Source: Streptococcus sp. Marseille-P6264
GTDB taxonomy: Bacteria; Bacillota; Bacilli; Lactobacillales; Streptococcaceae
Length of the DNA stretch: 64,000 nt
Assembly: GCF_902460355.1 (NCBI RefSeq)
Contig: NZ_CABPTO010000006.1
Location: forward strand, 1-64,000
Reading direction: 5' to 3'
Position 1 is the stretch's first letter; each line of letters opens with the position of its first letter. Shown piece by piece: positions 18,760 through 37,665 of this stretch. The translations under genes and the position numbers were made by a program. A model generated the notes under the pieces. The model was not told where the DNA came from, made no database searches, and was given only the letters and a program-made list of their open reading frames with translations.

Positions 18760-19929
18760 ATGATGGGAAAAAAGTTTTCTAATAGCTATTTGGCTTATTT
18801 TTTGATGTATAATTTTTATTTTCTGTCCAATTCATTGTTTTCGACCTTGATATCCGTTTATATGCTGGATAAGGGGTACACGGCTGGTCAAGTATCTATC
18901 GTCGTATCAGCTTCTTTCTTTTCTTCCATGCTGGCTCAGCCAATCATGGGGCTGTTAACTGATACACTTGGTATCAAGAGGGTTTCGCTTATCAGTTTTT
19001 TCCTGATTATTATGGGAGACATCTTTTTCATGGAGGCTGATAATCTATGGCTTTTAGCCATCTGGTACAGTTTTGTCTTGATGCTCATCAATGGGGTGGG
19101 TACCGTGATGGATGTACTGGCAACCCAAAGTCCTTATAAATATGGGAAAATCCGAATTTGGGGAACGATCGGTTACGCCGTCGGTTCACAGCTGGCAGGT
19201 TTGATTTATAAGAATATTTCTCCCCAGGCCATCTATCTGGTCTTTATCGGGACTATGCTGCTGAGTATTATAGGGGTTCTTGGCATGAATCCCAAGCGGG
19301 ATAAATTAACTAAAAAGACTGAAAAACGAGGAAATTCGCTCTTTTCAGCCATTCTTAAAAACAGAACCTATCTTTTTTATCTTTTTCTTGTTGCCCTTTA
19401 CTCTGGTGTGGGAAATACAGGTCACACTTATATTCCCTCCATGCTAGAATCCAGCGGTTTGAGTGTTGATTGGGCAACAACTGTTGTGGCTGTCTCTGTA
19501 CTGTGCGAGGCGCCTTTAATCTTTTATTCCTACCTTTTCATGGATAAAATCTCTGTCAAAAAGTTGCTCTATATTTGCTTGGGCATGATGCTCCTCCAGT
19601 ATGCGGTTTATGCTGTGAACTTTGGCTTATGCTCGAAAATTGCAGTCACCCTGCTTTCTAAACATGCTTCTGGTATGGTACTGACCATGCTTAGTCTGCG
19701 CATCGTAGCAAATCTGGTAGATGAAAAATATTTGGTGACAGCCTTTGCGCTGCTCCAGACAGGGAGAAATTTGGGCACGATTTTCATTCAGAATATGTCA
19801 GGGTCTATCTTGGATCACTTGGGCTATGATAGGATGAATCTTATGTTGACAGCCATTATCGGCCTAGTACTCTTGCTTGCCCTCTTTTTGAAAGTTCCTG
19901 AAAAGAAGAATCAGAATTTATTTGGATAA
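18760..19929 (+). CDS. MFS transporter
   Basis: The protein of about 389 residues has roughly twelve transmembrane helices and the MFS loop signature (GLLTDTLGIKRV between helices 2 and 3). It resembles the LacY/nucleoside-H+ symporter-like MFS_1 group (IWGTIGYAVGSQLAGL). The substrate cannot be told. GGAGAGG is 5 nt before the ATG at 18760 and 8 nt before 18763, so either may start. It stands alone between two terminators. Confidence 0.82.
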   Translation: MMGKKFSNSYLAYFLMYNFYFLSNSLFSTLISVYMLDKGYTAGQVSIVVSASFFSSMLAQPIMGLLTDTLGIKRVSLISFFLIIMGDIFFMEADNLWLLAIWYSFVLMLINGVGTVMDVLATQSPYKYGKIRIWGTIGYAVGSQLAGLIYKNISPQAIYLVFIGTMLLSIIGVLGMNPKRDKLTKKTEKRGNSLFSAILKNRTYLFYLFLVALYSGVGNTGHTYIPSMLESSGLSVDWATTVVAVSVLCEAPLIFYSYLFMDKISVKKLLYICLGMMLLQYAVYAVNFGLCSKIAVTLLSKHASGMVLTMLSLRIVANLVDEKYLVTAFALLQTGRNLGTIFIQNMSGSILDHLGYDRMNLMLTAIIGLVLLLALFLKVPEKKNQNLFG

Positions 19930-28260: not shown

Positions 28261-28289
28261 AAGGTATGACTCCTATGGAATCATACCTT
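28261..28289 (-). terminator. Terminator of the leftward three-gene operon
   Basis: AAGGTATGA (28261-28269) and TCATACCTT (28281-28289) are perfectly complementary, with TCC/GGA extending the stem after one mismatch. The minus strand continues TTTTAATTTTTC. It lies just after the 155-residue gene. Confidence 0.8.
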
Positions 28290-28294
28290 GCTAT

Positions 28295-28762
28295 CTAGTC
28301 CACTGTCTCACTTTTAATTCTAGCTCTCAGAAAGCGCAAATCATTAAAAATATAAATTAGAAGAATGATTTGACAAGAGTAAAATCCCCAATCTAGCCTA
28401 TAAATATCTCTTTGAATAGTGATAGAAAACAGGGTATACATCATGAAGATAAAACTAGCTATGAAAAGTAGGAAGGATTGTAGGCTTGCTATAAAAGGAT
28501 AGCCTCTCTTTTTCAAAATGGATTTGAATAAAAGAGCTAGGGCAGGCAAAATGGAAAATAAGGTAAAACAAGTTAAAAAATAAGAATTAATCAAATTTCT
28601 AAAATCTTTGCCCCAAAAGATAGAATCCTCGTTTTGAAAAATATAAATTGGATGTGATCTATCGTTTAAAAAGGGTAGGCCAAGGATGACCAGATAAAAT
28701 ACAATCAATAATCCAATTTGCCAAGAGAAACCTTCTTTCCTTCTCTCTTTATTGTCTGACAT
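28295..28762 (-). CDS. Hypothetical four-helix membrane protein (155 aa)
   Basis: I do not recognise the family. A charged N-terminus (MSDNKERRKEG) is followed by four hydrophobic helices (about residues 15-32, 60-82, 92-115 and 126-143) with short loops, so it is an integral membrane protein with no visible catalytic motif. The words FSWQ just before helix 1 also occur before the helix of the 328-residue protein in this operon. It starts 2 bp after the stop of the 263-residue gene, so translation is likely coupled. It is the last gene of the leftward operon. Confidence 0.8.
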   Translation of the reverse strand: MSDNKERRKEGFSWQIGLLIVFYLVILGLPFLNDRSHPIYIFQNEDSIFWGKDFRNLINSYFLTCFTLFSILPALALLFKSILKKRGYPFIASLQSFLLFIASFIFMMYTLFSITIQRDIYRLDWGFYSCQIILLIYIFNDLRFLRARIKSETVD

Positions 28763-28764
28763 GT

Positions 28765-29556
28765 CTATCTCCCTTCTATGATTTTTCCTTGCTTAACCTC
28801 AACATAATAATCGATTTTCTCATCAATCGTTCCCAATACATAGGTTCCATCAGGTAAGCTTAATTGTCCTAGCAACTGCTGGATTTGGTCTCTTAGATAA
28901 AAATGTTCCTTGTATTTTTCTTCTGGTAAGATAATTTGAACATAAACTGCGCTATGTGATAAGGCATCATTTAAAGGCAAATCGTACAATTCTTCAAGAA
29001 TAGAATGGTTATTGCTAACAGCATCTTCCATACGATCGCTATACCAGAGCTCACCTTTACCAAATCTATTTTGGTTAGATAGAGTGCTTCTCAGCTTAAC
29101 AGTTCCCCCTTTTAGGTGTGAAGCCTGATTTAATTTTCTCGTCAAAGATTGTTCCAATTTAGTTCGCTCGGGGTTAATTTCTAAAGCTTTTTCAATAATT
29201 GGCGCATATACTCTGATAGATTCATCATATATAGGGTTCCTCCACTTGTCTATATCCATCTTGTCGTAATAAGGCATGACTAATTGTTTGAAGCGGACCG
29301 ATTTTTTTACAGGGACAGAGATGGTTTTGTCCTTAATTTTTTCAGTATAGGTATAATTGACATCTATGCCCCAATTTTCTTCAGCCCAGGAAAAGCCAGT
29401 TATCTTAATCTCTCCCCAAAAATTACGATTGGTGTAAAAGCCTTTGAGATGAGCTTCTAGATTTCGGTAGAAAAACAAAGACGAGACCACTAGAAAGCAT
29501 ATAAGCACCATGAAACTTTTTCTCTTGTCCGTATCAATCTTTAAATTCTTTTTCAA
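28765..29556 (-). CDS. Hypothetical single-pass exported protein (263 aa)
   Basis: One transmembrane helix (about residues 14-31) follows a Lys/Asp-rich cytosolic start; the remaining 230 or so residues should lie outside the membrane as a type II protein without a signal-peptidase site. The exported part is rich in Lys, Glu, Tyr and Arg and has no cysteine and no recognised motif. The end (YVLGTIDEKIDYYVEVKQGKI) looks like a small beta domain. The gene overlaps the upstream 328-residue gene by 23 bp and is followed 2 bp later by the 155-residue gene. Function unknown. Confidence 0.8.
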   Translation of the reverse strand: MKKNLKIDTDKRKSFMVLICFLVVSSLFFYRNLEAHLKGFYTNRNFWGEIKITGFSWAEENWGIDVNYTYTEKIKDKTISVPVKKSVRFKQLVMPYYDKMDIDKWRNPIYDESIRVYAPIIEKALEINPERTKLEQSLTRKLNQASHLKGGTVKLRSTLSNQNRFGKGELWYSDRMEDAVSNNHSILEELYDLPLNDALSHSAVYVQIILPEEKYKEHFYLRDQIQQLLGQLSLPDGTYVLGTIDEKIDYYVEVKQGKIIEGR

Positions 29557-30520
29557 TGGCTTCCTCCTTAATGACTTGCTTGCACTCTTCTTCCGTACGG
29601 ATTAATTCTTCTTCGCCACTCTTTGTATACTTTTTGTTAATGCTCCAGTAAAAAGAGCCGGCATCGGGGAAGAACATTTTTGTTAGGGTGATGCTATCGT
29701 TGAGGGTCATGTTTTCTTTTAAAACTACTATATAGCCGTATTTTTTCAATATTGAGAGGAGTAGGCTATCCTCTGGTTTGCGATCACTATCATCAGCATC
29801 ACTATCCGTTATACGTGATTGGTAATCGTTCTTTTTGTAACTAAACAAAGTAGGCCAATCCGTAGTTACATTTTCGCTATCATACTTATATATCCCTGTG
29901 ATAAATGATGGACTTGAAAGTACCCGGTAGAGCCCTCCATATCCGAAATGAATCGCCTCTTTGGGCTGTTTTTTTGTTGCTTTTTTACTGGTTAGGTTTA
30001 CATAGATTTCATCATTATCGTTTATCCGAATTTTTGCATATTCATCTTTTCCATCAGAATACATAAGATTATCCATCTTGCCTTCTATGGTGACATAACC
30101 CATATCTTGAACGAGTTTCAAGACATCAATCGTTTGGCCATCCCCTTGCTCCTGACCCAGTTTATAATAACGAATTCGGAAGTATTCTTCCTTGTCCTTT
30201 GCTTTCAGTGTTCCCACATACTGCTTTGAATCCTGAAATGCTAAAAATTTCCGTCCAACAGCAAAATCATACGGACTCCACTCGTCGCTCTCTTTAAAAG
30301 AAAGAGCAATCATAGGGAATTCTGGCTCGGTCTCACCAATAGTTGTATAATCTGTTAAACGCTGATTCTTTCCTTTATAGACATAAGTTCTTTCTTTGAC
30401 CACATAAGCAGCTTCTTTTGTGAAAAAGAAAGAACAAGCACCAGCGATAAGAAAAATGACCAGTGTTGCCAAAGCATAAATCTGCCACATTTGCCAAGAG
30501 AAATTCTCTAGCTTCTTCAT
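29534..30520 (-). CDS. Hypothetical single-pass exported protein (328 aa), first of the leftward operon
   Basis: A short cytosolic start (MKKLENFSWQMWQ) leads into one helix (about residues 13-33), then about 290 extracytoplasmic residues. These contain YVYKGKNQRLTDYT, a YGGLYRVLSSPSF segment and an acidic stretch DSDADDSDRKPED (about 240-252). The C-terminus is strongly charged. I recognise no family. AAAAGGAGA precedes the ATG and an extended -10 lies 31 bp upstream, divergent from the 541-residue gene. Shared start motif with the 155-residue protein suggests the products are related in topology or partner choice. Confidence 0.8.
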   Translation of the reverse strand: MKKLENFSWQMWQIYALATLVIFLIAGACSFFFTKEAAYVVKERTYVYKGKNQRLTDYTTIGETEPEFPMIALSFKESDEWSPYDFAVGRKFLAFQDSKQYVGTLKAKDKEEYFRIRYYKLGQEQGDGQTIDVLKLVQDMGYVTIEGKMDNLMYSDGKDEYAKIRINDNDEIYVNLTSKKATKKQPKEAIHFGYGGLYRVLSSPSFITGIYKYDSENVTTDWPTLFSYKKNDYQSRITDSDADDSDRKPEDSLLLSILKKYGYIVVLKENMTLNDSITLTKMFFPDAGSFYWSINKKYTKSGEEELIRTEEECKQVIKEEAIEKEFKD

Positions 30521-30550
30521 CCTATTCTCCTTTTAGATAGATTATGGACT

Positions 30551-30606
30551 ATTATATCATTTTTTGTAAACTTCCTGCTATAAGCAAAAGAAAAGTATGA
30601 TAAAAT
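30551..30606. promoter_or_regulatory. Divergent promoter pair of the unknown membrane-protein island
   Basis: Leftward, TG-A-TATAAT reads on the minus strand with TATAAT at 30556-30551. Rightward, TG-A-TAAAAT spans 30598-30606. Both are extended -10 elements without good -35 boxes. Start points would be only about 60 bp apart, so the two operons probably share control. Confidence 0.6.
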
Positions 30607-30636
30607 GGTATTATTATAGTTTTATAAGGGAAAAAT

Positions 30637-32262
30637 ATGAATCAAGCACGTCTCAAAAAAATCCTGAAAATATCGAGTTTCTTTCTATTCGCTTTTGTGA
30701 CATATCATGTCTACTATCAATCTCTTGTCCCTCATCTTACAGCCAGGAACGAGGAAGATGCTAGACTGAGCCAGTCCAAATATCAAATCGCCTATGGGCA
30801 AGTAAGAGATTTTCAAAAGATCGGAAATTTTGCTTTGGCCATTGATATGTTTGGTGATGTCCAGCAGAAGGAAGGCTACATTATTGCTCAGAATTATCGC
30901 ATTCCCAAAACTCAGGATCCTTCTGAGGGGCAAGCATTTTATGATAAAGAGAAGTCTGAGTATTTTTATCAAATTGATATTTACAAAGAGGATGAAGGGA
31001 TTCAGTCACTGAGAAAGATTGATGTAAGAGATATCCTTCTCAAAGAAAAGAAGAAATATAAGATCATCAGTACGGCGAAAATAGATGCTTTTGACTCACC
31101 AACCAAGGCTCCCTATTTAGAAATAGGGTTGGAAGAAATTGATGGAGATGCTCGAGAGTTCTCTCTTATCATTGATTTACAGACCTTAGAAAGTCGCATT
31201 ACTCGCCTTATAGGATCTTCATCTGAGGAAAAAATCACTAGCAGGAGTAATAGGGAATTATCGGTTGTCAGAGCCAATCCTGTCTTTGCAGAGCGCTTGA
31301 AGAATCTGAGCTTCGTTATTGATACTGATGATACTATCACAATGCGACCATATCAAGGAGGAGAACTGATCAATCTCTACCAAGAATATCCTCATATTTT
31401 TGAAATGGCTAAAAAAGGTAGTTTTACGATCTATCCACAGTTTCAATACAAAGAAGATCTAACTCAACAAGTTTCAAATTTTGCTAATCTTTTCAATTAT
31501 CCAGGTGAAGCTCCCTTTTGGTCTGCTCAACAGAAACAAGATTACGAGGCAGACCGAGCTTTGAAACAGACAAAAGATTTATCGACTCCCCTTTCATATG
31601 ATTTTTTCATGGAGAAAGTAAAAGAAGAAGGCAAACTTAATTCGATAGAAGGGATGATTCCTATCGGCTTTGATATCAATACTGGGGAAATAGTTACCGT
31701 TGATTTCAAAAAAGGACCTGTTTATCTCCAGAATTTCAACCTAGATGACCATATAAATAGTCTAAGTTTTATAGAGTCCAATTATTCCTATATAAGGGAT
31801 GTGCGGTTTGATCAAGTTAGTATCGACACAGCCATGTCTTATAAATTAGGTACAAAATCTGTAAGTGATTACAGTAGGATGATTGAGGATTCTAAAATCA
31901 ATAAACCGAGAGAGACACGCTATATCACCTGGCTTCAATATAAACCAAACAACAATGTACATGAATCCGATATGAATATCGTTAAGGGAATTGTGGATCA
32001 AGGAATCTTGTACAAAATCTTCTCTATATTTAGTCTTGAAGAGGGGCAAATGACAGTGAATCAGACTGGGACTAACAGCAATCTTGCAGTAGGGAAGACC
32101 AAAATATTAGTACAAAATGGCCATCAACTTCTTGATTCATTACAGTTTGAGACAAATGATGTACCTAGCTTGAATCATGATGAAATGATCAAGTCTGGTC
32201 GGATTATATATGTTCTTATCGATGGGCAGCTTCGTCAAGTAAAAGTTCCGGAGGAAAAGTAG
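30637..32262 (+). CDS. Hypothetical single-pass exported protein (541 aa), first of the rightward operon
   Basis: A basic start is followed by one helix (about residues 9-29) and about 510 extracytoplasmic residues with no cysteine. Recognisable words are few: GMIPIGFDINTGEIVTVDFKKGP (about 342-364) faintly recalls the segment before Walker A in FtsK/EssC proteins, but no P-loop follows, so I do not claim an ATPase. Size and topology are unlike any streptococcal family I can name. The ATG follows AAGGGAAAAAT, a weak ribosome site. The 337-residue gene begins directly after the stop. Confidence 0.8.
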   Translation: MNQARLKKILKISSFFLFAFVTYHVYYQSLVPHLTARNEEDARLSQSKYQIAYGQVRDFQKIGNFALAIDMFGDVQQKEGYIIAQNYRIPKTQDPSEGQAFYDKEKSEYFYQIDIYKEDEGIQSLRKIDVRDILLKEKKKYKIISTAKIDAFDSPTKAPYLEIGLEEIDGDAREFSLIIDLQTLESRITRLIGSSSEEKITSRSNRELSVVRANPVFAERLKNLSFVIDTDDTITMRPYQGGELINLYQEYPHIFEMAKKGSFTIYPQFQYKEDLTQQVSNFANLFNYPGEAPFWSAQQKQDYEADRALKQTKDLSTPLSYDFFMEKVKEEGKLNSIEGMIPIGFDINTGEIVTVDFKKGPVYLQNFNLDDHINSLSFIESNYSYIRDVRFDQVSIDTAMSYKLGTKSVSDYSRMIEDSKINKPRETRYITWLQYKPNNNVHESDMNIVKGIVDQGILYKIFSIFSLEEGQMTVNQTGTNSNLAVGKTKILVQNGHQLLDSLQFETNDVPSLNHDEMIKSGRIIYVLIDGQLRQVKVPEEK

Positions 32263-33276
32263 GTGCAGAAGATAGTGATAAAAATAAAAAAATGCTTTCA
32301 AAATAAAATCTTTTTGAATGTTGCTGGCTATACCTTGGCTTTTACACTTGGTTTATTTTTAGCTTTTTATGTCTCTGAGAGGGAAAAAATGACCATTCAG
32401 TCTGAGCAAAGACAGGCTCAAACATCCCAAGAAAAGAAAGCTACAAGAGCGAAAGATGAGGCTGTTCAGATAGAAAAACTTGAAGACAAGATCTATATGG
32501 TGAAAAATCCTAACTCTGCTATCTTGTCTGATAAGTATATCTTACAGCAAGAAATGAATTACTCTGATCAATCCTTTCACTTTGACAGTTATCAGGCGTT
32601 TACTAAGGACAATAAACATAAGAACCATGTAAAAATTAAGCTATTTAATCAAGTTGAAGCGTTGTATAAAGATTACGATTTAGTCCAATTGGCTCAAAGC
32701 CTGCATAGTCAAGCCATACCAGGGAAGGTTAGCCATCAGCTATATCAAGATCCTCAGGATGGGCAATATTATTTTGCTTTTGAAGTCTATCTACCGGGTG
32801 GTAAGCAAGAAAATGACTACTCGAACGCTCATGAGGAGAATCCTATCTATACTCTCTATACCAATATTGAAAACGGGCAGACCTTTTATCTAAAAGATTA
32901 TTTTAAGCCCCTGAGTATCCGTGACAAGTATCCTGTCTATGGCGCTAGTAATCTGGATGATAAACTAGAGAAGTACGGCTTGGTTTTACTCAACAGTCCA
33001 CATAACTTTACCCTCATTCAAGGGGAAGAAACTTTACAGATCAAAAAGTTGAAGCTAAGCCAGCAATTTCCAAATATAGAGGAAAAACTTGCTAGCGGCT
33101 GGAGTTTGGTTGTAACTGGAGAAGATTCTTATGAAACGAGTATCAGACTTCTAGCGTCTGAAGGAGAAACCGATCTCTATACAAACGTCAAACTAGATCG
33201 TTCTTATTCATCTGATGACCAAGATCATCTCTTAAAGTCTTATCATGATTTCCTTGAGCTATACAAGGAAAAATAG
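32263..33276 (+). CDS. Hypothetical single-pass exported protein (337 aa)
   Basis: It starts at GTG 32263, the base after the stop of the 541-residue gene, with GGAGGAAAAG inside the upstream gene as ribosome site. One helix (about residues 17-40) is followed by a Gln/Lys-rich coiled stretch (about 45-75) and an exported domain. Words such as VEALYKDYDLVQLAQSLHSQAIP and NPIYTLYTNIENGQTFYLKDYF suggest a folded beta-rich region, but I recognise no family. It is the last gene of the rightward operon and ends before a strong terminator. Confidence 0.8.
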   Translation: MQKIVIKIKKCFQNKIFLNVAGYTLAFTLGLFLAFYVSEREKMTIQSEQRQAQTSQEKKATRAKDEAVQIEKLEDKIYMVKNPNSAILSDKYILQQEMNYSDQSFHFDSYQAFTKDNKHKNHVKIKLFNQVEALYKDYDLVQLAQSLHSQAIPGKVSHQLYQDPQDGQYYFAFEVYLPGGKQENDYSNAHEENPIYTLYTNIENGQTFYLKDYFKPLSIRDKYPVYGASNLDDKLEKYGLVLLNSPHNFTLIQGEETLQIKKLKLSQQFPNIEEKLASGWSLVVTGEDSYETSIRLLASEGETDLYTNVKLDRSYSSDDQDHLLKSYHDFLELYKEK

Positions 33277-33305
33277 CAAGTTTCTTTTTATCAAATAAGA
33301 TCGTT

Positions 33306-33359
33306 CCATATGAATCTTTCTAATGATGCTTTTCATTGGTTTCATATGGGGCTTTTTTT
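33306..33359 (+). terminator. Terminator of the rightward two-gene operon
   Basis: CCATATGAA (33306-33314) pairs perfectly with TTCATATGG (33341-33349); CTAATGA/TCATTGG (33320-33326/33333-33339) extends the stem inside; seven T follow. Confidence 0.9.
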
Positions 33360-33463
33360 ATGCCTTCAGAAAGTTATTTCGGATTTACCAACTGCACAGC
33401 CTTCATGGTATCTTTCTCAAACATTTGTAAAGGATCTAAGTCTTTATGACAAAAATCTTTATT

Positions 33464-33546: not shown

Positions 33547-33867
33547 ATGGAGATACTGTTTTGGTGTCTACTTCCGATATTTTCTGGCTTGTGGCTGATG
33601 TCATCCAGTGAATTGAAAAATGTAAAAAGGAAGTTGAAACGTTTAGAGAGAAGTAAAGAAAGGAGTGGAGAAATGTCACGTTTTTTTAAAGAAATGATTG
33701 GGAAAAAACCGATCATCATCGGTGAAGTTTTTGGAACGGATGGCTGGATGATTGTTGATGCCGATGACGATTGGGTTAAGTTGAGTAAGACCAATAAAAA
33801 AGGTCAAACAAAAATTAAGCTCATGCGTATTGACGATATCAAGTCTGTTGAACTGAAAGAAGACTGA
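33547..33867 (+). CDS. Small membrane-anchored protein with a beta-rich C-terminal domain (106 aa)
   Basis: A hydrophobic N-terminal helix (about residues 3-18) is followed by a Lys/Arg-rich linker and a compact domain (about 52-106; KKPIIIGEVFGTDGWMIVDADDDWVKL) that looks like a small beta barrel. AAAGGAGG precedes ATG 33547. A second strong site, AAAGGAGTGGAG, precedes an in-frame ATG at 33673, which would give the 64-residue soluble domain alone. Two products may be made. Family not recognised. It is followed 11 bp later by the XRE regulator gene. Confidence 0.75.
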   Translation: MEILFWCLLPIFSGLWLMSSSELKNVKRKLKRLERSKERSGEMSRFFKEMIGKKPIIIGEVFGTDGWMIVDADDDWVKLSKTNKKGQTKIKLMRIDDIKSVELKED

Positions 33868-33878
33868 GAGGTGTTGTC

Positions 33879-34085
33879 ATGAAGCTGAAAAATCGACTTA
33901 AAGAGCTGAGGGCCAGAGACGGGCTGAATCAAACTGACTTGGCCAAGAAAGCCGGCGTGTCGCGGCAAACGATTAGCTTGCTGGAGCGGGATGAATACAC
34001 GCCCTCCGTGGTCATTGCTCTCAAAATTGCTCAGATTTTCAACGAAAGTGTCGAAAATGTCTTTCGCCTAGTGGAGGAAGAGTAG
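33879..34085 (+). CDS. XRE-family (Cro/CI-type) transcription regulator, 68 aa
   Basis: The whole protein is one helix-turn-helix domain: LKELRARDGLNQTDLAKKAGVSRQTISLLERDEYTPSVVIALKIAQIFNES is the classic HTH_3 layout, with the recognition helix at about residues 28-36. It resembles YgzD/YozG-like small regulators that sit with membrane-protein or transporter genes. The palindrome over the promoter of this operon is its most likely target, giving autoregulation. GAGAGGTG precedes the ATG. Confidence 0.92.
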   Translation: MKLKNRLKELRARDGLNQTDLAKKAGVSRQTISLLERDEYTPSVVIALKIAQIFNESVENVFRLVEEE

Positions 34086-34253
34086 GCCGTTAGGAGTAAT
34101 CAGTTGCTGGAGAAATTTTATGCTAGCCATCTTGTCTTGAAGACTAGTAAGCAAGTTCTGTATCACGGTAGTACTTGAGCTGATCCTGATAAGCTGTGTA
34201 AGTATATTAGTGCTTTTCCGCAAGTGACGGAAAGTAAAACAAGGAGAAAAACA

Positions 34254-34607
34254 ATGCAAGAATTTATGGAAAACTTTAAAGTTAACGAAGAACAAGCAAA
34301 AATTGCTGGTGTTTGCGCAGGTTTGGCAGATTATTTTGGGATAAAAGTAGCTTATATTCGTCTGATTTTCGCAGTTGTAGTGCTATCGTCAACTGAGCTA
34401 GGGATTTTTGTAGCCTTGGGCTATGCCTATCTGGCAGGATGGTTCCAAAAGGATTATTTGTGGAATAAAATGAGCAAAAAAGTCAGAAATCACTTTATTT
34501 TTCTGATGACAGTGCTGATTATTTTACCTTTATTTGGCCGTGAAATACTGGAAACTGCCTCTGACTTTATTAGCCAAGTCATGGCTTGGCTGACTGCGCT
34601 TATTTAA
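34254..34607 (+). CDS. PspC-domain membrane protein
   Basis: The 117-residue protein has the PspC domain (residues about 14-70; IAGVCAGLADYFGIKVAYIRLIF) with a membrane helix, then a second helix (about 82-100) and an amphipathic end. PspC proteins take part in envelope-stress responses and LiaFSR-like sensing in Firmicutes. I start at ATG 34254, 8 nt after AAGGAG. The 168 bp before it show no clear promoter, so it is probably read from the upstream operon promoter. Confidence 0.9.
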   Translation: MQEFMENFKVNEEQAKIAGVCAGLADYFGIKVAYIRLIFAVVVLSSTELGIFVALGYAYLAGWFQKDYLWNKMSKKVRNHFIFLMTVLIILPLFGREILETASDFISQVMAWLTALI

Positions 34608-34622
34608 GAATAGGAGAAAACA

Positions 34623-35363
34623 ATGTCAACAAAGAAAAGAATATTGAGAAATATCGGCATCTTAATTCTTGCTGTTATATTAGGAGGAGTAATTGGCTTT
34701 ATAATGGCTCATTTTGAGCATTTCTCTTGGCCGACCGTCTTAAATGTTGAACTGCTGAAGAACATTGGTCGAGCGAGTTTATTTATTCTCTATCCCGTAA
34801 CCTTTTTCTTGCTCTATCAGACGCATAAAGTTCACGGGGCTTACCAGAGAGAAGAAGATGATGATAAAAGCTATGAGCTCTATCGTCAAACTTTTAAAAC
34901 CCTAGAATATGCGACGATTTTATATAATATTTCGTCTGCTCTGACTCTATTCACCCTCTTTGTAGGAGTGAGCTACCTAGGTCCGCTACTAGGGTCAGAC
35001 ATGACGATTGACATTCCATTTTATGATATTGCACTGTTTCTTGCTTTGATTTTAGGTCAAATTCTTGTATTGAAAACCACTCAGAAGGTTCGTCAATATA
35101 AATTATCTGCTATGCCAACCATTGAGGAGATGAAGGACTATGCGCTGTCCTATGATGAAGGAGAGTTGCAGGCTCATTATGAACAAAGCTTTTTAACGCT
35201 CTTCAACCTCAATCAACGCCTCATTCCAGGCCTCTATGTCTTACTCTTTATTCTTGGAGTTGGAACACCGATGCAGGTCGTATCTGGCATGATTGTCTTA
35301 ACCATTATTTTTGTCTATATCAATGCTGAGTCTTATCGAGCAGTTAAGAGATATTTCAAATAG
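34623..35363 (+). CDS. DUF3169 family membrane protein
   Basis: The 246-residue polytopic protein has six hydrophobic helices in the DUF3169 layout: helix 1 (about residues 10-30), helix 2 (about 45-65), a cytosolic EEDDDKSYELYRQTFKTLEYAT segment, then four more helices. A long conserved loop AMPTIEEMKDYALSYDEGE (about 162-180) separates the pairs. Function is unknown, but DUF3169 genes commonly sit with XRE regulators and ABC-2 transporters in streptococci. It lies 15 bp after the PspC gene. Confidence 0.87.
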   Translation: MSTKKRILRNIGILILAVILGGVIGFIMAHFEHFSWPTVLNVELLKNIGRASLFILYPVTFFLLYQTHKVHGAYQREEDDDKSYELYRQTFKTLEYATILYNISSALTLFTLFVGVSYLGPLLGSDMTIDIPFYDIALFLALILGQILVLKTTQKVRQYKLSAMPTIEEMKDYALSYDEGELQAHYEQSFLTLFNLNQRLIPGLYVLLFILGVGTPMQVVSGMIVLTIIFVYINAESYRAVKRYFK

Positions 35364-35400
35364 GCTGTTTGTCAGCTAAAAAGGAGTTCACCTGAAATTA

Positions 35401-35553
35401 GTGAGTTTTATCTTTCCTAGTATCTATATTGGACTGATACCGCTAAATCTTCTATTCCAACTGGATATGATTTTAGCTTGGATTGCGGTATCGGTCATCT
35501 ATCTTTATGTTACTGTCAGCCAGTACAAAATCGTTAAACCTTATTATAAGTAA
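35401..35553 (+). CDS. Putative small membrane protein, 50 aa
   Basis: The frame encodes two hydrophobic stretches (IFPSIYIGLIPLNLLF and MILAWIAVSVIYLYVTV) and a basic tail. AAGGAG lies at 35381-35386. The first standard start is GTG 35401, 14 nt downstream; a CTG at 35392 has better spacing and adds three residues. It fills the gap between DUF3169 and the ABC ATPase, in the same operon. Too short for firm assignment. Confidence 0.5.
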   Translation: MSFIFPSIYIGLIPLNLLFQLDMILAWIAVSVIYLYVTVSQYKIVKPYYK

Positions 35554-35572
35554 GAAAGTGAGAAGAGGTCTT

Positions 35573-36406
35573 ATGTCACAAGTGATTCAAGTAGAGAATA
35601 TTTCCAAAAGTTTTGGAGATAAAAAAGCTTTAGAACGGATTAATTTTCATATCGATCAAGGAGAAATTTTCGGATTTTTAGGACCATCTGGGTCGGGAAA
35701 AACAACCTTAATTAATATCCTGACAGGCCAGCTTGATGCCGACAATGGTCAAAGTAAAATCCTTGGTAAAGCTTCAGATGCTATTAATGCTCAGGATTTG
35801 GTGAAGATTGGCCTAGTATCTGATACAAGTGGCTTTTATGAGAAGATGACTCTCTATAAAAACCTGCAGATATATGCGAAATTATACGGTTTAAAAAATG
35901 AGCGGATAGATGAAGTTTTAGAGCAGGTTGGTTTGTTAGAAAGCAAAAATATTGTAGCAGAGAAGCTTTCGACAGGTATGAAGCAGCGGATGTTTCTAGC
36001 TCGAGCTCTTTTAAATAATCCTGAGGTCTTATTTTTGGATGAGCCAACGAGTGGGCTTGATCCTCGTACTTCCAAGGTGATTCATGAGCTTTTGCTTGAG
36101 CTGAAGAAAAAGGGAACAACCATTTTTCTGACGACTCATGATATGCATGAAGCTAGCGCCCTTTGTGATCGACTGGCCTTGCTAAATAAGGGAGTATTAG
36201 TAGAATATGGCGAGCCGAAAGCTATTATTCAAAAATATAACACAGCCAAGAAAGTTAAAATTAGCTATGAAAATGGAGAAACCGAGCAAATTTCGTTCTC
36301 AGAATTGGCTACAAAAGACCTAAAATTGGCTATTACAGTACATTCTTGCGAACCTACATTAGAAGAAATCTTTATTCAATTAACAGGAGAAAAACTAGAT
36401 GTATAA
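35573..36406 (+). CDS. ABC transporter ATP-binding protein
   Basis: This 277-residue ATPase has Walker A GPSGSGKTT (about residue 38), the Q-loop region, signature LSTGMKQR (about 133), Walker B VLFLDEP (about 152) and the H-loop TTHD (about 185). It belongs to the CcmA/DrrA-like exporter group. I start at ATG 35573 after GAAGAGG; the longer frame upstream overlaps the small membrane gene and is not family-like. It overlaps its permease gene by 8 bp. Substrate unknown; export of a peptide or lipid, or self-protection, is typical. Confidence 0.94.
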   Translation: MSQVIQVENISKSFGDKKALERINFHIDQGEIFGFLGPSGSGKTTLINILTGQLDADNGQSKILGKASDAINAQDLVKIGLVSDTSGFYEKMTLYKNLQIYAKLYGLKNERIDEVLEQVGLLESKNIVAEKLSTGMKQRMFLARALLNNPEVLFLDEPTSGLDPRTSKVIHELLLELKKKGTTIFLTTHDMHEASALCDRLALLNKGVLVEYGEPKAIIQKYNTAKKVKISYENGETEQISFSELATKDLKLAITVHSCEPTLEEIFIQLTGEKLDV

Positions 36407-37091
36407 AAAAATTAAAGCTCTCACATGGCTGCGTACTCAGATTTTATTGACAAACTCTTCTTTGCTTATGTCCGTCTTGCTGCCCTTTGGCCTCCTCTTT
36501 TTGTACAATATGATTTTAAATAAGAATGGCAATGCAGGTCAAGGACTATTGAAGATGATCCTACCTATGACCTTTTCTATGAGTGGCGGCTACATGGTGT
36601 CTATTATGATGGCAGAGGACAAGGAGAAGCGCAATTTAAAAACCTTAATGTTGAGCGGGGTTCGTTCTGGCGAATACCTCTTATCCATGTTGGTTTATCC
36701 CTTCCTATTTACAGTCTTTGCCTTGCTTTTTTTCCCATATTATTTGCATGTAGATCTCTCCGGCAAATGGCCTATCTATCTTTTGATCAATCTCTTCATT
36801 ATTGTTATTATCCTTTTAATCAATCTTTTTATTGGTGGTATTTCCAAGACACAATCTCAAGCTCAGGTTTATAGTTTATTTCCGCTGTTGCTGATTAGTT
36901 TCGTACCTCTATTTGCTAGTTTTGATAAAACAATACAGCATATTCTGCGGTTTACTTTTATGAATCCATTTATCAACTTCTTTGAAACAGGAGACTATTC
37001 ATTCAAAATTGAAGATTTCTCTAATTTGGTGATTTGGCTTCTTATTTTTATCAGTGCAAGCACCTATGTCTTGAGTAAAGGTCGAAAATAA
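36399..37091 (+). CDS. ABC-2-type transporter permease
   Basis: The 230-residue integral membrane protein has six helices in ABC-2 style, with the conserved SGGYMVSIMMAEDKEKRNLKTLMLSGV segment between helices 2 and 3 and GGISKTQSQAQVYSLFPLLL after helix 4. It partners the ATPase whose last 8 bp it overlaps. Length and pattern match the permeases of bacteriocin-immunity or lantibiotic-resistance-like exporters, but the cargo cannot be inferred. Confidence 0.9.
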   Translation: MYKKIKALTWLRTQILLTNSSLLMSVLLPFGLLFLYNMILNKNGNAGQGLLKMILPMTFSMSGGYMVSIMMAEDKEKRNLKTLMLSGVRSGEYLLSMLVYPFLFTVFALLFFPYYLHVDLSGKWPIYLLINLFIIVIILLINLFIGGISKTQSQAQVYSLFPLLLISFVPLFASFDKTIQHILRFTFMNPFINFFETGDYSFKIEDFSNLVIWLLIFISASTYVLSKGRK

Positions 37092-37104
37092 TGGAGGAGC
37101 TTTT

Positions 37105-37665
37105 ATGAAACTTATTAAAAAAATCAACTTTATGGAAGAAAAGAAATATGTAATCGGTCTAAATGTAGCGGGGCTCTTACTGATTTTTCCTTTCTCAATG
37201 CTTTTTGCGAAATTGACCCAGCTAATTTTTCGTGCAGACCATTATGATTTTTCGGGTCTAGATCTTGCCTATTTTTTAGTTTTTGCCTTTATCCTTGTCG
37301 TCATCCATGAGTACATCCACGGTTTCTTCTTCAAGTTTTTTGGTAAAGGGAAGGCCAAGGTCAAGTTTGGTTTTAAAAATGGGATGGCCTACGCGACTAG
37401 TCCAGGAACTTTTTACAATCGTAAGGACTTCTTGGTCATTGGTTTGGCTCCCTTTGTTTTGATTAGCTTGCTTCTGACTTTATTGGCCATGCTGGGCTTG
37501 CTCAGTTCAACTCTCTACTTGCCTCTAGCTAGTATTCATGCAGCGGGCTGTGTTGGTGACTTTTACATCGCTTTGCTGCTGTTGGGCCAGACTGATGATA
37601 TTCTGGTCGAGGATACTGAGGTTGGGATGAACTTTTACCAGAAAGAAGAGCCTAGTCAGGGCTAG
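37105..37665 (+). CDS. DUF3267 family putative membrane zinc metallopeptidase
   Basis: The 186-residue protein has four hydrophobic helices. HEYIHGFFFKFFG (HExxH, about residues 72-84) lies in the second helix, the mark of DUF3267 putative zincins; a later helix has HAAGCVGDFYIALLLL, whose aspartate may be the third ligand. It would cut substrates in or near the membrane. GGAGG precedes the ATG, 13 bp after the permease. It is the last gene of the operon that begins at 33547. Confidence 0.85.
   Translation: MKLIKKINFMEEKKYVIGLNVAGLLLIFPFSMLFAKLTQLIFRADHYDFSGLDLAYFLVFAFILVVIHEYIHGFFFKFFGKGKAKVKFGFKNGMAYATSPGTFYNRKDFLVIGLAPFVLISLLLTLLAMLGLLSSTLYLPLASIHAAGCVGDFYIALLLLGQTDDILVEDTEVGMNFYQKEEPSQG

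What the first reader, a model, noticed from the sequence alone, without database searches (positions are those of the whole stretch)
28261..33359. Divergent five-gene island of unrecognised membrane-anchored proteins
Three leftward genes (155, 263 and 328 residues) and two rightward genes (541 and 337 residues) share one 116-bp divergent promoter region with two extended -10 elements. Four of the five have one N-terminal helix and a large extracytoplasmic part without cysteines; the fifth is a four-helix membrane protein. Genes touch or overlap within each operon (23-bp overlap, 2-bp gap, 0-bp gap), and both ends are closed by strong terminators. The 155- and 328-residue proteins share FSWQ before their first helix. 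I recognise no family. The layout suggests a single surface complex, perhaps for export, sensing or competitor defence.
Basis: partly seen in the sequence, partly recalled or inferred. Interest (0 to 1): 0.75.

Follow-up and report, generated by a model that had tools for sequence, protein, structure and literature searches.

The report
Orphan toxin-immunity island in a streptococcus
Five neighbouring genes in an oral streptococcus, three of them distant relatives of proteins that other streptococci encode right behind presumed secreted antibacterial toxins, look like a shield worn on the outside of the membrane by a cell that does not itself make those toxins; the shielding role is inferred, not tested.

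Summary
The anatomy is as described: A-B-C (328, 263, 155 aa) leftward, D-E (541, 337 aa) rightward, a 116-bp divergent region, strong terminators. No curated family is reached. Yet A, D and E belong to one divergent superfamily ('F', defined here) of single-pass extracytoplasmic proteins: with the membrane helix removed and the A and E clades left out of the profile they score 1.9e-15, 1.4e-7 and 4.4e-17. F matches occur in 48 of 197 streptococcal genomes. A recurrent setting is a type VIIb secretion (T7SSb) module: EssC, ~120-aa protein, ~700-aa presumed effector, F. In a search started from the effector, 27 of 28 testable genes are directly followed by F, and once more in another family. 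The window's genome has no EssC over cut-off, no LXG and no such effector, yet another F gene there lies among Imm33, Imm47 and DUF6572 genes. Best reading: an orphan T7SSb immunity island. Weak points: most F places (102 of 134) are not near EssC, and the A-B-C clade was never seen beside an effector.

The parts
29534..30520 (-). gene A, 328 aa: N-terminal helix plus ectodomain; F-superfamily member (own deep clade)
28765..29556 (-). gene B, 263 aa (TTG start): N-terminal helix plus ectodomain; not an F member; a lipoprotein-like relative lies beside F genes in two other genomes
28295..28762 (-). gene C, 155 aa: small multi-helix membrane protein, third gene of the A-B-C module
30637..32262 (+). 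gene D, 541 aa: weakly hydrophobic N-terminal segment, F-like domain (about residues 40-280), extra C-terminal part of unknown kind
32263..33276 (+). gene E, 337 aa (GTG start): F-superfamily member over most of its length
30521..30636 (.). 116-bp divergent region with two extended -10 elements (30559-30551 -, 30598-30606 +)
28261..28289 (-). terminator after gene C
   Evidence: z -5.3
33303..33359 (+). long terminator-like hairpin and T run after gene E
   Evidence: z -5.2 for 33290-33362

Best explanation
An orphan T7SSb immunity ('antitoxin') island. Membrane-anchored proteins whose domains face the cell wall (D and E; [quoted passage not shown] Shown: A, D and E share a superfamily, some members of which stand directly behind a T7SSb-linked polymorphic gene; that gene's C-terminal part and F co-vary; the window's genome has no EssC over cut-off, no LXG and no such gene. 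Inferred: that this ~700-aa protein is a secreted toxin; that F neutralises it; that the window's own members keep that function; that B and C take part; that the toxin acts outside the cytoplasm.
For: Homology: F profile without the A and E clades, membrane helix cut off: E 4.4e-17, A 1.9e-15, D 1.4e-7; best of 60 shuffled versions 3.4; B gave no hit, C only E 73; hhalign against the first F alignment: A 98%, E 95%, D only 32%. Effector link: 21 of 21 effector genes in loci chosen around EssC are followed by F at -35 to +25 bp (biased choice); in the genus-wide search started from the effector, 27 of 28 testable near-full-length genes, the miss being G069, with one more (G173:C23) cut by a contig end. 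The same module stands in another family of the order (L185). Polymorphism: mean identity 32% over the effector's N-terminal part, 21% over the rest; partial Mantel of the C part against F given the N part r 0.76, p 0.0005, 19 pairs. Machinery: 38 of 48 F genomes against 28 of 149 others have EssC over cut-off (Fisher p 5e-14, not corrected for kinship). Orphanhood: own genome has no EssC over cut-off (3 of 12 candidates were scored), 0 LXG, 0 effector. The own F paralogue at G000:C7:58448-59461 stands within about 4 kb of two DUF6572 genes, Imm33 and Imm47. Precedents: TipC is a single-pass, wall-facing T7SSb immunity protein with paralogue arrays (PMC6193138 and PMC9484751, passages including the abstracts); exiCD occur in antitoxin islands, also without T7SS genes (PMC12744356, abstract and results section).
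Against: Most F places are not at T7SS loci: of 134 rows used (11 second pieces of listed proteins left out), 32 lie within 20 kb of a listed EssC match and 102 do not (contig ends and the capped list lower the count). No effector lies near any A-B-C or D-E locus seen. Direct profile comparisons of A, D and E with one another were negative (hhalign 5.5%, 0.1%, 0.1%); the kinship rests on the larger family. A forms a clade of 12 with full support and no effector-linked member, very far (about 4.6 substitutions per site) from the nearest one; D and E fall near effector-linked members only with weak support (0.44-0.78). F also co-varies with the effector's N-terminal part (partial r 0.35, p 0.0005). 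A-B-C goes with EssC only weakly (10 of 16 against 56 of 181, p 0.024). B and C are not F members. No assay and no usable structure.
Confidence: 0.62

Rival explanations
1. F proteins are secretion partners or surface receptors of the T7SSb effectors rather than immunity proteins; orphan copies are leftovers of lost systems.
For: Tight adjacency to the effector would look the same. F is often followed by a ~120-aa protein, a size like that of T7SSb partner proteins (recalled). S. suis immunity proteins with DUF6572 double as export adaptors (PMC12558993, passages). F also co-varies with the effector's N-terminal part.
Against: F genes with open frames persist in genomes without EssC: G000, G003, G008, G048, G085, G156 and G186 show not even EssC fragments in the capped list; in the six of these looked at they stand singly or in small islands (G085 not looked at), in G000 beside Imm33/Imm47/DUF6572 genes. 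F co-varies more with the effector's C-terminal part than with its N-terminal part (partial r 0.76 against 0.35). One short C-terminal effector cassette (G166) has its own F.
Confidence: 0.15
2. The superfamily is an old wall-facing binding domain; the A-B-C and D-E proteins have turned to something else, such as envelope stress, bacteriocin resistance or sensing.
For: A is deep-branching and never beside an effector in the loci seen; A-B-C keeps its gene order, is doubled in tandem in three genomes, and sits at several sites. Most F places are away from EssC.
Against: Patchy presence (16 of 197), tandem doubling, and decay of A to a 47-residue remnant with a stop in four genomes (G037, G085, G093, G096) suit an immunity cargo better than a housekeeping role.
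Confidence: 0.2
3. As first proposed, all five proteins form one dedicated surface complex.
For: Shared divergent region and overlapping genes; all five together in 4 of 197 genomes at two sites.
Against: A-B-C or its remnants occur without D-E in 12 further genomes; A, D and E are paralogues, as expected of stacked specificities; no interaction could be modelled.
Confidence: 0.08

Closest known systems
TipC, immunity protein of the lipid II phosphatase TelC (Streptococcus intermedius)
   Same: N-terminal helix with a wall-facing domain; paralogue arrays behind a T7SSb effector (PMC6193138 and PMC9484751, passages including the abstracts).
   Different: TipC is about 204 aa, F about 330 aa; no NCBIfam match over a cut-off and no TipC chain among PDB sequence matches of F or the window proteins A, B, D, E; fold not testable here.
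ExiCD and staphylococcal antitoxin islands
   Same: Immunity at the outer face, two proteins needed together, orphan islands also in genomes without T7SS genes (PMC12744356, abstract and results section).
   Different: ExiC and ExiD are six-helix proteins; four of the five here have at most one N-terminal helix.
DUF6572/Imm59 immunity proteins of S. suis MSE-ExT toxins
   Same: Immunity genes of this kind stand beside the F paralogue of the window's own genome; truncated essC copies precede the effectors (PMC12558993, passages).
   Different: The window's five proteins and the F proteins scanned show no match to them; MSE-ExT toxins target NAD+, while three scanned effectors paired with F have no assigned domain.

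Membership tests
F superfamily (defined here) | profile match of the ectodomain, helix excluded, query clade left out of the profile | tested here: met
   A, D, E met; B no hit, C only E 73; direct A-D-E comparisons negative
T7SSb immunity protein (functional class) | gene directly behind its effector | tested here: not met
   found for the superfamily elsewhere (27 of 28 effector genes), not for the window genes: own genome has no such effector and no LXG
T7SSb immunity protein (functional class) | diverse paralogues, tandem copies, orphan copies outside T7SS loci | tested here: met
T7SSb immunity protein (functional class) | binds and neutralises the toxin | not testable with these tools
   needs an assay
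TipC | sequence similarity to TipC | tested here: not met
   no NCBIfam match over a cut-off and no TipC chain among PDB sequence matches
TipC | N-terminal helix and wall-facing domain | tested here: met
   hydropathy and flanking charges for A, B, E; D's helix is under the threshold; location itself not tested
TipC | crescent fold with seven-stranded sheet | tested here: inconclusive
   models of A and E have mean pLDDT 42 and 38; no fold search run
ExiCD | pair of six-helix membrane proteins | tested here: not met
   only C is multi-helix, with three clear helices

The most novel reading that the evidence does not exclude
A previously unnamed superfamily of wall-facing immunity proteins pairs with an equally unnamed T7SSb effector family, and in streptococci without the weapon it has been built into multi-gene shields: here a three-protein unit (A-B-C, which would need all three parts) set back to back with a two-protein unit (D-E), one promoter region switching on protection against several toxins at once.
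Probability: 0.35. Interest if true: 0.65.

Novelty: new variant of a known kind. Interest (0 to 1): 0.5.

Why it matters
It gives a testable identity to proteins that curated libraries leave blank, links a widespread streptococcal gene family (matches in 48 of 197 genomes) to contact-dependent antagonism, and names a candidate toxin-immunity pair (effector C-terminal domain plus F) ready for a simple co-expression test. It also suggests that oral streptococci without T7SS carry shields against neighbours that have it.

Tried and rejected
Curated libraries (Pfam, NCBIfam, PHROGs, PADLOC) gave only weak matches, under the curated cut-offs where there are any, for the five proteins. PDB sequence searches with A, B, D, E and F profiles gave nothing credible. 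Plasmids: no match of D. Viral contigs: no relative of F, A or B, so a phage origin is not supported, although one A-B-C copy lies beside what I read as an integrase gene (L066; not scanned). A YycH/YycI-type regulator was considered from memory and dropped: no Pfam match. Direct profile comparisons among A, D and E were negative. Structure prediction of A and E from three near-identical sequences failed, so no fold search was run. A glycine-zipper toxin was considered for the effector: only one of six had a GxxxG-like motif in its last 250 residues; its activity stays unknown. Mantel figures rest on 19 pairs that are related to one another. Genome counts are not corrected for kinship. In one search three candidates per genome were scored and the list of places was cut. 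Is F in print? Searches and the passages read show no such family, but papers cannot be searched by sequence here and many journals are not held.

Full report
Observation. The five ORFs, their overlaps, the 116-bp divergent region with two extended -10 elements, and the two terminators are as described. Small corrections are in the observation check. The stretch is somewhat richer in A+T than the window (64% against 58%). By my reading of the ORF (not scanned) the left neighbour is alaS; to the right stand an HTH gene, a PspC-domain gene and a DUF3169 gene and, again by reading, ABC transporter genes.

Host. The window is part of a 2.04-Mb genome in 13 contigs. The only named relatives of D found in the genome collection are two Streptococcus cristatus strains at 94-96% identity.

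Two modules. Among 197 genomes of the genus, D is found in 4, with strong matches of E in the same four (five further genomes have weak E matches that turned out to be members of the wider family where read). A has matches in 21: 12 cover at least half the protein, four are 47-residue remnants and five are short matches inside other proteins. B has 17, of which one (G159) is a 42-residue match that I leave out; C has 13, and in G034, G113 and G132 a small multi-helix ORF stands where C would be. The order A-B-C is kept, sits at several sites, and is doubled in tandem in G168, G100 and G169. D-E was seen only facing A-B-C; in G055 the five genes stand at a different site from that in the S. cristatus-like genomes.

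Superfamily. Weak matches of A and E led to streptococcal proteins of about 310-395 aa with one N-terminal helix. An alignment of seven of these (A2) matches A with 98% and E with 95% hhalign probability, D with only 32%, B with 3%; A, D and E compared directly with one another gave 5.5%, 0.1% and 0.1%. Searched against 197 genomes, A2 has matches in 48, up to nine in one genome, some of them short. Iterated, and then rebuilt without the A and E clades and with the helix of each query removed, the profile scores E at 4.4e-17, A at 1.9e-15 and D at 1.4e-7; 60 shuffled versions gave 3.4 at best; B gave no hit and C only E 73. So three of the five proteins are distant paralogues, linked through the larger family. 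D's first half carries the match; its second half is unassigned.

Where F lives. In T7SSb loci a recurrent order is EssC (often a truncated copy), a ~120-aa protein (in L122 a YwqH-like match under the cut-off), a presumed effector of 640-740 aa, F, then often another ~120-aa protein. This is not the setting of most F genes: of 134 rows used (11 second pieces left out), 32 lie within 20 kb of a listed EssC match. Effector genes found in loci picked for that closeness are followed by F in 21 of 21 cases. Because that choice is biased, I searched all 197 genomes with the effector alignment: 32 places in 21 genomes. Of the 29 near-full-length ones, 27 are followed by F, one (G069) is not, and one (G173:C23) runs off its contig. 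Of the three short places, one effector C-terminal cassette in G166 has its own F, G020:C19 has none, and the third is a short stretch in G166. In another family of the order the same module recurs with two F genes (L185). A search of 198 genomes of the order, the genus included, found matches in 25: 13 of the genus and 12 outside; outside, only G305 and G362 are strong, and the other ten are weak matches in the N-terminal third.

Co-variation. For 19 non-redundant pairs, mean identity is 32% over the effector's first part (about 150 residues), 21% over the rest and 22% for F. The C-terminal part correlates with F at r 0.91, the N-terminal part at 0.81; given the other part, 0.76 and 0.35, both with p 0.0005. 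This suits a toxin-immunity pair, without excluding other partnerships. Three effectors were scanned and have no Pfam or NCBIfam assignment over a cut-off, LXG included; that they are secreted toxins is inferred from their place and polymorphism.

Orphans. Among the 48 F genomes, 38 have EssC over the curated cut-off, against 28 of 149 without F. Seven F genomes show not even EssC fragments in the list, the window's among them; in the six looked at (G000, G003, G008, G048, G156, G186; not G085) F genes stand alone or in small islands. In the window's genome the best EssC-profile match is far under the cut-off (E 9.3e-35, the level found in all 197 genomes, as expected of FtsK), with 0 LXG and 0 effector matches. 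Its third F gene (G000:C7:58448-59461; D is not hit in that search) has two DUF6572 genes (7.2e-27, 4.5e-27), Imm33 (6.4e-15) and Imm47 (1.8e-63) within about 4 kb. DUF6572 is the conserved C-terminal part of S. suis T7SSb immunity proteins (PMC12558993, passages).

Precedents. [quoted passage not shown] EsxX immunity is split between cytoplasmic ExiAB and membrane ExiCD, the latter also in antitoxin islands, some in species without T7SS genes (PMC12744356, abstract and results section). Protective immunity clusters in strains without the toxin are noted in a review (PMC10765036, passages). TipE is a DUF5085 protein without a transmembrane domain (PMC10434224, passages). The S. gallolyticus survey names TipC, DUF5085, DUF443, Imm63 and DUF6572 as immunity families (PMC13253547, passages); no family like F is named in the passages seen.

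What stays open. The tree puts A in its own clade of 12 without effector-linked members; D and E fall, with weak support, near a group that has seven effector-linked members of 27. A-B-C is only weakly tied to EssC (10 of 16 genomes against 56 of 181). So the immunity reading is firmest for the superfamily, weaker for D-E, and weakest for A-B-C, where B has lipoprotein-like relatives (by my reading of their N-termini) beside F genes in two genomes and C is a small membrane protein. I therefore hold the island reading at 0.62.

Noticed in passing
L125:6446-11496 (own genome, contig C7): An array with an F gene, two DUF6572 genes, Imm33 and Imm47 in a genome where no EssC over cut-off was found: a second immunity island.
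   Followed up: partly
L131:2179-18739: Three successive modules, each an EssC-like gene or fragment, a 120-147 aa protein, a ~700-aa effector and F.
   Followed up: yes
L185:3125-10500: The EssC-effector-F module outside the genus, in another family of the order, with two tandem F genes.
   Followed up: partly
L122:8967-9473 and 19306-19794: Small ORFs at the end of the effector arrays; the second has weak glycine-zipper matches. Perhaps orphan toxin ends.
   Followed up: no
L019-L022: Gene A reduced to a 47-residue N-terminal remnant with a stop in four genomes that keep B and C.
   Followed up: no
L171:824-1450: A 208-aa single-helix protein matching the effector profile's C-terminal part; possibly a rearranged toxin-immunity remnant.
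   Followed up: no
L127:5372-10863 and L139:5087-9332: F proteins, several of them long (393-470 aa in L127), together with lipoprotein-like relatives of gene B, with no EssC-like or effector gene seen in the fetched stretch.
   Followed up: partly
window 33547-37665: Neighbouring set of a short ORF, HTH regulator, PspC-domain protein, DUF3169 protein and (by reading) ABC transporter genes, perhaps an envelope-stress operon.
   Followed up: no
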